Assembly: GCF_000744935.1 (NCBI RefSeq)
Contig: NZ_JQMW01000013.1
Span: 496,001-560,000, forward strand
Direction of reading: 5' to 3'
Source: Clostridium sp. KNHs214
GTDB taxonomy: Bacteria; Bacillota; Clostridia; Clostridiales; Clostridiaceae
DNA length: 64,000 nucleotides
Shown here: in pieces, positions 60,263-61,410 of the stretch
Layout of the letters: every line of letters begins with the position of its first letter
Numbering within the stretch: the stretch's first letter is position 1
Notes under the pieces: model-generated
Told to the model about the DNA's origin: nothing
Databases searched by the model: none
What the model saw: only the letters and a program-made list of their open reading frames with translations
Position numbers and translations under genes: made by a program

Positions 60263-60440
60263 TTCCTACTTCATAGTCTTGAAACTCCATAGGCTTTAAA
60301 TCCCGTAGGTCCTACGGTAGAACTGGGGATTATACAATCCCCGTATATTTAAAAAGAATGTGGGCGCAAAATTTTTTTCATAAGAGTTACATTTATTTTT
60401 TCCCCAAAATTAAGCGGAATATTTGTATTTAATGATTTAT
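60263..60440 (-). ncRNA. Candidate guide RNA (omega-RNA-like) of the TnpB-like repressor
   Basis: Overlaps the 3' end of the TnpB-like gene and continues past its stop. Structured elements on the minus strand are GGGGATT-GTAT-AATCCCC (60325-60342) and CCGTAGG-A-CCTACGG (about 60304-60318), then a segment ending GGAGTTTCAA (60279-60288). Right ends of Firmicute IS605-type elements end in the same manner (GAG-x-GTCAA or similar), and the omega-RNA guide follows immediately. The predicted guide therefore starts at 60278: GACTATGAAGTAGGAA. Its 5' boundary is not determined. The rest of 59921-60262 is AT-rich without a gene. Confidence 0.6.
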
Positions 60441-61410
60441 AATTGTACTCTAAATTTAAATAACTATCACTATTTTCCACGTAAATAAGACTTTTATTAT
60501 ACCAGCAACTCTTATACTCTAAAAACTTACAGAACTTGCTCCAAGAAAAACTTTTTAGATGTGCACAATTTTCTATATAATCTGTGCCTTTTTTCACATT
60601 ACATTCCTGAATATATATGATTTGATTTTCATCAACTATATTCTTTGAAAGTTTATGTAAAAAATCATCTCTTTTATTTTGAATTTTTTCATAGAGCTTT
60701 CCTATTTGTTTCTCTAATTTTTTTCTATTATTGCTTTCTTTTTCTTTACTAAGCAATTTTCTTTCTAATTTTTTTATTTTTTTTATATATTTAAAATAAT
60801 AAATACTTTTATCATTGCTTATGGTAATAAAATCTTTCATCTGAAGACTTATTATATTTTTACCTTCTGTAGAAGGAATTTGACGTTTTTTCTGTTCTGT
60901 TATTACGGATACGTAATACTTACCACTAGAACTTTTGATAACTGTGGCACTTATTATTCTTCCTTCAACTTTTCTATGAACTTTTGCGTCTACCCATTTA
61001 AGTTTAGGTAACTTTATTTTTCCATCCTTAATTACTATATTGGAATTAACACAATTTACAGTGTAACACTTTCTAATACTTTTTTTACTTTTAAAATTAG
61101 GAAATCCAAAGGCCTTATTTTTAAAAAAATTTTGAAAGGCCTTATCTAAATTCCTAATTGATATTTGCAAAGAAGTGCTGTCCGCTACTTTTAGCCAGGG
61201 ATACTGTTTTTTTAATAAGGGAAGATGATTTTGTTGTTCCAGATATCCAATAGTTTTACCTGCAGAGTCATAGGCTCTTATTCTCTGAGATAAAAAGTAA
61301 TTATATACAAACCTAACACAACCAAAATTCTTTTCAATTTTAGCTATTTGATGAATGTTTGGATAAATCCTGAACTTGTAACCTTTGTTTAAGAGAGAAC
61401 TATTTTTCAC
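60349..61410 (-). CDS. Nuclease-dead TnpB-like protein, candidate RNA-guided repressor (TldR type)
   Basis: 353 residues from GTG (61408-61410) with GAGGAGG 8 bases upstream. The whole TnpB fold is present: N-terminal GYKFRIYPNIHQIAKIEKNF, GCVRFVYNYFLSQRIRAY, SLQISIRNLDKAFQNFF, GFPNFKSKK, VHRKVEGRIISATV and the RuvC region. All three catalytic acids are replaced. RuvC-I GIDLGLKDF is IISLQMKDF (Asp to Ser188), RuvC-II VEDLNV is IQECNV (Glu to Gln268), and RuvC-III DRDINAA is GEKINVT (Asp to Lys338). The zinc-finger CxxC pairs are gone. The frame is intact, no tnpA is nearby, and an omega-RNA-like 3' end remains. These are the hallmarks of TldR proteins, RNA-guided repressors derived from TnpB. 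It lies just downstream of an oppA-type gene and behind a riboswitch-like leader. Confidence 0.85.
   Translation of the reverse strand: MKNSSLLNKGYKFRIYPNIHQIAKIEKNFGCVRFVYNYFLSQRIRAYDSAGKTIGYLEQQNHLPLLKKQYPWLKVADSTSLQISIRNLDKAFQNFFKNKAFGFPNFKSKKSIRKCYTVNCVNSNIVIKDGKIKLPKLKWVDAKVHRKVEGRIISATVIKSSSGKYYVSVITEQKKRQIPSTEGKNIISLQMKDFITISNDKSIYYFKYIKKIKKLERKLLSKEKESNNRKKLEKQIGKLYEKIQNKRDDFLHKLSKNIVDENQIIYIQECNVKKGTDYIENCAHLKSFSWSKFCKFLEYKSCWYNKSLIYVENSDSYLNLEYNYKSLNTNIPLNFGEKINVTLMKKILRPHSF

What the first reader, a model, noticed from the sequence alone, without database searches (positions are those of the whole stretch)
60263..61410. Nuclease-dead TnpB homologue that looks like an RNA-guided transcription repressor
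The sequence shows a full-length, uninterrupted TnpB-like frame in which all three RuvC catalytic acids are substituted (Ser188, Gln268, Lys338) and the zinc-finger cysteines are lost. The N-terminal nucleic-acid-binding half and the omega-RNA-like 3' end are conserved. There is no tnpA and no left element end. Known TldR proteins share exactly this pattern, and some lie beside opp-type transporter genes; here the neighbour is an orphan oppA. Exaptation rather than decay is indicated because the frame, promoter and RBS are intact while only the nuclease centre is destroyed.
Basis: partly seen in the sequence, partly recalled or inferred. Interest (0 to 1): 0.92.

Follow-up and report, generated by a model that had tools for sequence, protein, structure and literature searches.

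The report
Nuclease-dead TnpB kept by selection
A transposon's RNA-guided DNA-cutting protein has lost its cutting residues but has been kept intact in the same chromosomal spot, with its guide-RNA-like tail, in two bacterial species, so it most likely binds DNA as an RNA-guided gene regulator; which gene it controls is still unknown.

Summary
Window 61410(61419)-60349 (-) encodes a full-length TnpB homologue (HMM E 1e-90; model Z 27 to ISDra2 TnpB). The RuvC D/E/D residues are S/Q/K and the zinc-finger cysteines are gone. I found one orthologue, in Haloimpatiens lingqiaonensis (83% identical): same three substitutions, same place between oppA and carA, intact frame, dN/dS 0.19 at dS 0.45. Decay is excluded. 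No other genome among about 226 of the order has a comparably close homologue. The nearest intact TnpBs (about 50%) are in Clostridiaceae insertion sequences. Comparison with them shows that the omega-RNA core is retained, the left end is gone, and the terminal right-end hairpin has been replaced. It would end in '..GG[T/C]CAC' plus a 17-nt candidate guide identical in both species. I found no convincing genomic target for this guide: no second exact match, near-matches no more frequent than the reversed-pattern control, and nothing TAM-flanked upstream of oppA paralogues. Best reading: an independently exapted, TldR-like RNA-guided DNA-binding regulator. Repression and target are inferred, not shown. 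New member of a known kind, provisionally.

The parts
60349..61419 (-). tldR-like gene: nuclease-dead TnpB homologue, 356 aa from GTG 61419 or 353 aa from GTG 61410 (better RBS spacing); RuvC D/E/D replaced by S/Q/K, zinc finger lost
60241..60318 (-). omega-RNA-like scaffold core: hairpin CCGTAGG-N-CCTACGG, conserved TGAAGTAGGAAAAGTT, hairpin CTTAT/ATAAG; shared with active relatives at about 50% protein identity
60324..60343 (-). stem-loop GGGGATT-GTAT-AATCCCC directly after the stop codon, kept in the orthologue; function unknown
60176..60241 (-). long predicted hairpin (GATTT..AAATC; GGTTT..AAACC in the orthologue) where active relatives carry the terminal right-end hairpin
   Evidence: inferred equivalence
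60122..60131 (-). GGAAGGTCAC, candidate end of the scaffold; compare GTTCAC at the right end of active relatives
   Evidence: inferred
60105..60121 (-). candidate guide TTATAGTAAAAATTTAT, 17 of 17 identical in the orthologous locus
   Evidence: inferred, no target found
61557..61585 (-). promoter-like TAGACA-N17-TACAAT with TG before the second hexamer; second hexamer conserved in the orthologue, first hexamer one base different
61446..61471 (-). intrinsic terminator between that promoter and the start codon, after two predicted hairpins whose second stem changes sequence but stays paired in the orthologue; possible attenuator of tldR or simply the oppA terminator
61649..63337 (-). oppA-type solute-binding lipoprotein, conserved upstream neighbour
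58642..59691 (-). carA, conserved downstream neighbour

Best explanation
This is an exapted, nuclease-dead TnpB that probably works like a TldR. The protein binds an omega-RNA transcribed with, or from, its 3' flank, and is directed by the last 16-17 nt of that RNA to a TAM-flanked DNA site, where it blocks transcription because it cannot cut. Shown here: homology and fold, loss of the three catalytic residues and the zinc finger, loss of the left end, retention of the scaffold core, fixation at one place in two species, and purifying selection after inactivation. Inferred: RNA binding, the exact RNA end, the guide, DNA binding, and repression as the outcome.
For: TnpB models at E 1e-90 and 8e-59. 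Predicted fold Z 27.0, rmsd 3.0 over 303 residues to ISDra2 TnpB 8exa. D/E/D to S/Q/K, identical in both species, while 13 aligned homologues keep the acidic residues. The orthologue is syntenic between oppA and carA, 83% identical, with an open frame. dN/dS 0.19; equal nonsynonymous and synonymous rates are rejected at p 9e-22. The scaffold core keeps TGAAG[CT]AGGAAAAGTT and the CCGTA/TACGG stem shared with intact relatives. A 28-nt block carrying the candidate guide is almost unchanged between species: about 63% background identity, roughly 0.01 after allowing for position. In a tree the pair sits with intact Clostridiaceae TnpBs (support 97/94) on a long shared branch of 1.25.
Against: No convincing target was found. 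The guide has no second exact match in either genome, and sites with up to two mismatches number 27 and 20 against 40 and 34 for the reversed control. TAM plus 8 nt gives 8 and 5 sites against 4 and 3, none extending usefully. The terminal right-end hairpin of the active relatives, with its loop that could pair with TGAAG, is not conserved, so the RNA may no longer guide. Only two species have the gene.
Confidence: 0.6

Rival explanations
1. The protein was exapted but no longer uses a guide: it acts as a guide-independent nucleic-acid-binding protein, or as an RNA-binding partner of the leftover omega-RNA core.
For: The terminal right-end hairpin of active relatives is missing and no target was found for the candidate guide. 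All regions of the protein are under constraint.
Against: A 28-nt block ending in a guide-sized stretch stays almost unchanged between the species at the expected place after a ..CAC end. From general knowledge, TnpB-type proteins are not known to bind DNA sequence-specifically without a guide.
Confidence: 0.22
2. Dead TnpB as a trans-acting dampener or competitor of active IS200/IS605 elements: it occupies omega-RNAs or donor sites without cutting.
For: Seven further TnpB-like matches in the same genome, four of them of the same length and near-equal score; a left-end-like relic of the sister IS family lies at 4025-4046.
Against: The resident TnpBs are only about 27-33% identical to it, so sharing omega-RNAs is unlikely. 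The gene is fixed at one place with its own RNA tail in both species.
Confidence: 0.1
3. A decaying remnant of an IS605-type element with no function.
For: No tnpA, no left end, lost zinc finger, altered right end.
Against: Intact frame in two species, dN/dS 0.19 with dS 0.45, identical dead residues, conserved promoter, RBS and scaffold.
Confidence: 0.03
4. The conserved 28-nt block is not a guide but another element, for example an upstream element of the carAB promoter or part of an antisense transcript. (This rival concerns the guide only and can hold together with the best explanation.)
For: It lies about 100 nt upstream of a conserved carAB promoter and is AT-rich; no target was found.
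Against: No match to it was seen upstream of carA in other family members, and its position and ..CAC end fit the right end of active relatives.
Confidence: 0.3

Closest known systems
TldR (TnpB-like nuclease-dead repressors; fliC-, oppF- and csrA-associated clades). The fliC and csrA clades were read here in PMC13418256; the original 2024 report and the oppF clade are from memory (not held in the library)
   Same: TnpB homologue with inactivated RuvC, RNA-like 3' cassette, no mobility genes, stable association with non-transposon genes; here an oppA-type gene.
   Different: No guide target identified; scaffold end rebuilt; neighbours are oppA and carA, not fliC or csrA. Relation to the known clades was not tested because their sequences were not at hand; its nearest relatives found here are intact Clostridiaceae TnpBs, which suggests a separate inactivation.
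IS200/IS605 TnpB of Clostridiaceae (loci L043-L056) and ISDra2 TnpB
   Same: Same fold; the Clostridiaceae ones share the scaffold core and about 50% protein identity.
   Different: Those have intact D/E/D and Cys4 zinc finger, left end after TTTAA(C), right end closing in GTTCAC, and (in G191 and G192) several copies per genome.
OspTldR of Oscillibacter (PMC13418256)
   Same: Its guide RNA contains an extended stem-loop; here too a long predicted hairpin lies between scaffold core and candidate guide.
   Different: That one is csrA-associated and its RNA is cut by RNase III into two parts; no processing data exist here.

Membership tests
TldR | TnpB homologue by sequence and fold | tested here: met
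TldR | RuvC catalytic triad inactivated | tested here: met
   S/Q/K in both species against D/E/D in the aligned homologues; third position by sequence only
TldR | Guide RNA encoded beside the gene with a retained scaffold | tested here: inconclusive
   core scaffold retained, terminal hairpin replaced
TldR | Guide complementary to a host site with a TAM | tested here: inconclusive
   no target above control for the candidate guide; guide boundary itself inferred
TldR | Loss of transposon ends and tnpA, stable association with non-transposon genes | tested here: met
   no left end here, oppA and carA neighbours in both species
TldR | Maintained by purifying selection | tested here: met
   dN/dS 0.19
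TldR | RNA-guided DNA binding and repression without cleavage | not testable with these tools
   needs RIP-seq, ChIP-seq, RNA-seq
Active IS200/IS605 element (TnpB nuclease) | Intact RuvC triad | tested here: not met
Active IS200/IS605 element (TnpB nuclease) | Left and right ends present | tested here: not met
   left-end motif absent from this locus, terminal right-end hairpin absent

The most novel reading that the evidence does not exclude
A separate TldR lineage that arose by its own nuclease inactivation from Clostridiaceae IS605-type TnpB, fixed in the Haloimpatiens chromosome between oppA and carAB, with a rebuilt guide RNA (long inserted hairpin, 17-nt invariant guide) and possibly an attenuator-controlled promoter, regulating a yet unknown gene.
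Probability: 0.4. Interest if true: 0.65.

Novelty: new member of a known kind. Interest (0 to 1): 0.55.

Why it matters
TldRs show that transposon nucleases were turned into natural CRISPRi-like regulators more than once. A further, apparently independent case in a clostridial lineage, chromosomal and with a guide-sized stretch kept letter for letter across species, would broaden how often and how this happens. It also gives a compact dead TnpB with a predicted guide to test.

Tried and rejected
Guide target search by exact and mismatch patterns in both genomes, TAM plus seed, flanks of oppA paralogues and longer DNA queries gave nothing above chance. One single-mismatch site about 115-130 nt upstream of dapA and next to an oppA cluster (L063, L123) looked promising. 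It lacks a TTTAA TAM, and the single-mismatch site in the other species lies inside an IS transposase, so I dropped it. A 69-aa ORF at 60081-60290 is not conserved in the orthologue (early stop, read) and was rejected as a gene. The leader terminator also occurs before other genes, so it is not specific evidence for a riboswitch; Rfam gave only sub-threshold hits. The viral contigs, phage and plasmid searches gave no close homologue, and the scaffold pattern found none in viral contigs. An empty-site comparison was not possible because in the third genome of the genus oppA is not next to carA.

Full report
What is there. It matches the IS200/IS605 TnpB model at E 1e-90 and the guided_TnpB model at 8e-59, and solved ISDra2 TnpB at 7e-52. 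A structure predicted from 20 window and locus proteins has mean pLDDT 77 and aligns to ISDra2 TnpB with Z 27.0, rmsd 3.0 over 303 residues. The C-terminal 40 residues are not modelled with confidence.

Catalytic residues. In an alignment with intact relatives the three RuvC positions are Ser, Gln and Lys instead of Asp, Glu and Asp, in both this protein and its orthologue, while all 13 other aligned proteins keep the acidic residues. The zinc-finger cysteines are gone and the loop is shortened. The first two positions lie within the part of the model that aligns with solved TnpB; the third rests on sequence.

Orthologue and selection. Haloimpatiens lingqiaonensis carries an 83% identical gene in the same order, oppA - tldR - carA. 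The third genome of the genus held has no match at the threshold used, and the other family and order genomes searched, up to 226, have nothing closer than intact TnpBs of about 50% identity. Between the two species dN is 0.085 and dS 0.445, ratio 0.19. oppA (0.117) and carA (0.10) are somewhat more constrained. The excess of synonymous change is far from neutrality (chi-square p 9e-22). Inactivation therefore precedes the split and the protein has been kept since. In a tree the pair groups with intact Clostridiaceae TnpBs (97/94) on a long common branch (1.25 changes per column), as expected of a change of function followed by constraint.

The RNA tail. Multi-copy intact relatives define the ends: left end after TTTAA(C), right end closing with a strong hairpin and GTTCAC. 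The tldR locus has no left end; the only left-end-like motif in the window is at 4025-4046. Downstream of the stop codon it keeps the core CCGTAGG hairpin and TGAAGTAGGAAAAGTT, shared almost letter for letter with relatives of about 50% protein identity, and a small following hairpin whose pairs in the window differ from those of the relatives but stay complementary (CTTAT/ATAAG against CTTGG/CCAAG; the pairing in the orthologue is poor, and the automatic consensus fold chose other pairs there). The terminal right-end hairpin is not there. In its place both species have a long predicted hairpin of different sequence. Some 50 nt further lies a 28-nt block with one difference between the species, AGGAAGG[T/C]CACTTATAGTAAAAATTTAT. 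Its CAC end resembles the GTTCAC end of the active elements, and 17 nt after it conservation stops. Background identity nearby is 63%; the block is unlikely by chance but not overwhelmingly so (about 0.01 after allowing for position). I take TTATAGTAAAAATTTAT (60121-60105) as the candidate guide; this is an inference.

Target. The guide has no second exact match in either genome, and near-matches are no more frequent than for the reversed pattern. Reading the near-matches with their gene context gave no site that is TAM-flanked, intergenic and shared by both species. TAM plus 8 nt gave few sites, two of them orthologous between species but with no further match. The promoters of the oppA paralogues fetched from the two genomes contain no convincing TAM-flanked match. 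The target may need only a short seed, may use a changed TAM, or the guide boundary may be elsewhere. These cannot be separated without RNA data.

Upstream control. A TAGACA-N17-TACAAT promoter, close to consensus and conserved in the orthologue apart from one base of the first hexamer, is followed by two predicted hairpins and an intrinsic terminator before the start codon. The second hairpin is kept in the orthologue with a different sequence. This could be attenuation of tldR, or the oppA terminator; similar terminators occur before other genes.

Comparison with what is known. TldRs are described as TnpB-like nuclease-dead repressors with inactivated RuvC and no apparent loss of guide RNA and DNA binding, often tied to new neighbour genes (PMC13418256). 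The tested features are met, except that guide and target are inconclusive and repression is untestable here. The oppF association of known TldRs is from memory. PMC13418256 also describes a TldR guide RNA with an extended stem-loop cut by RNase III; the long hairpin here invites the same test. I therefore file it as a probable new member of a known kind, with function inferred.

Noticed in passing
window 4025-4046 (-): TTTAACGTAACTAGAAGAGGTTTCTATGTTCCATAAGTGAGG.. closely resembles the left end of the Clostridiaceae IS605-type elements whose TnpBs are nearest to tldR; it sits between rbsC- and rbsB-like genes without a transposase, apparently a solo relic (0 expected by chance).
   Followed up: partly
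window 59818-59928 (-): Sub-threshold match to the PyrR-binding leader (33.7 bits, cutoff 54) before carA, well conserved in the orthologous locus.
   Followed up: no
window about 2760-2890 and L123 about 7650-7780: Very similar palindromic repeats (..AGTCAGTATGCTAGTCTATTTTG..) after the rbsB-like gene and upstream of an oppA cluster, probably a dispersed non-coding repeat.
   Followed up: no
L123 1156-7363 (G000:C11) and L124 (G001:C28): Tandem clusters of three oppA paralogues; eight oppA homologues in the genome, so the oppA beside tldR is one of many.
   Followed up: partly
L002-L005: Four TnpB matches of the same length (391-codon open frames) in the host genome, about 32% identical to tldR: probably a recently active IS family.
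   Followed up: no
window 60324-60343: Perfect stem-loop immediately after the tldR stop codon, conserved in the orthologue with a changed loop; no T-run follows on the gene's strand.
   Followed up: no
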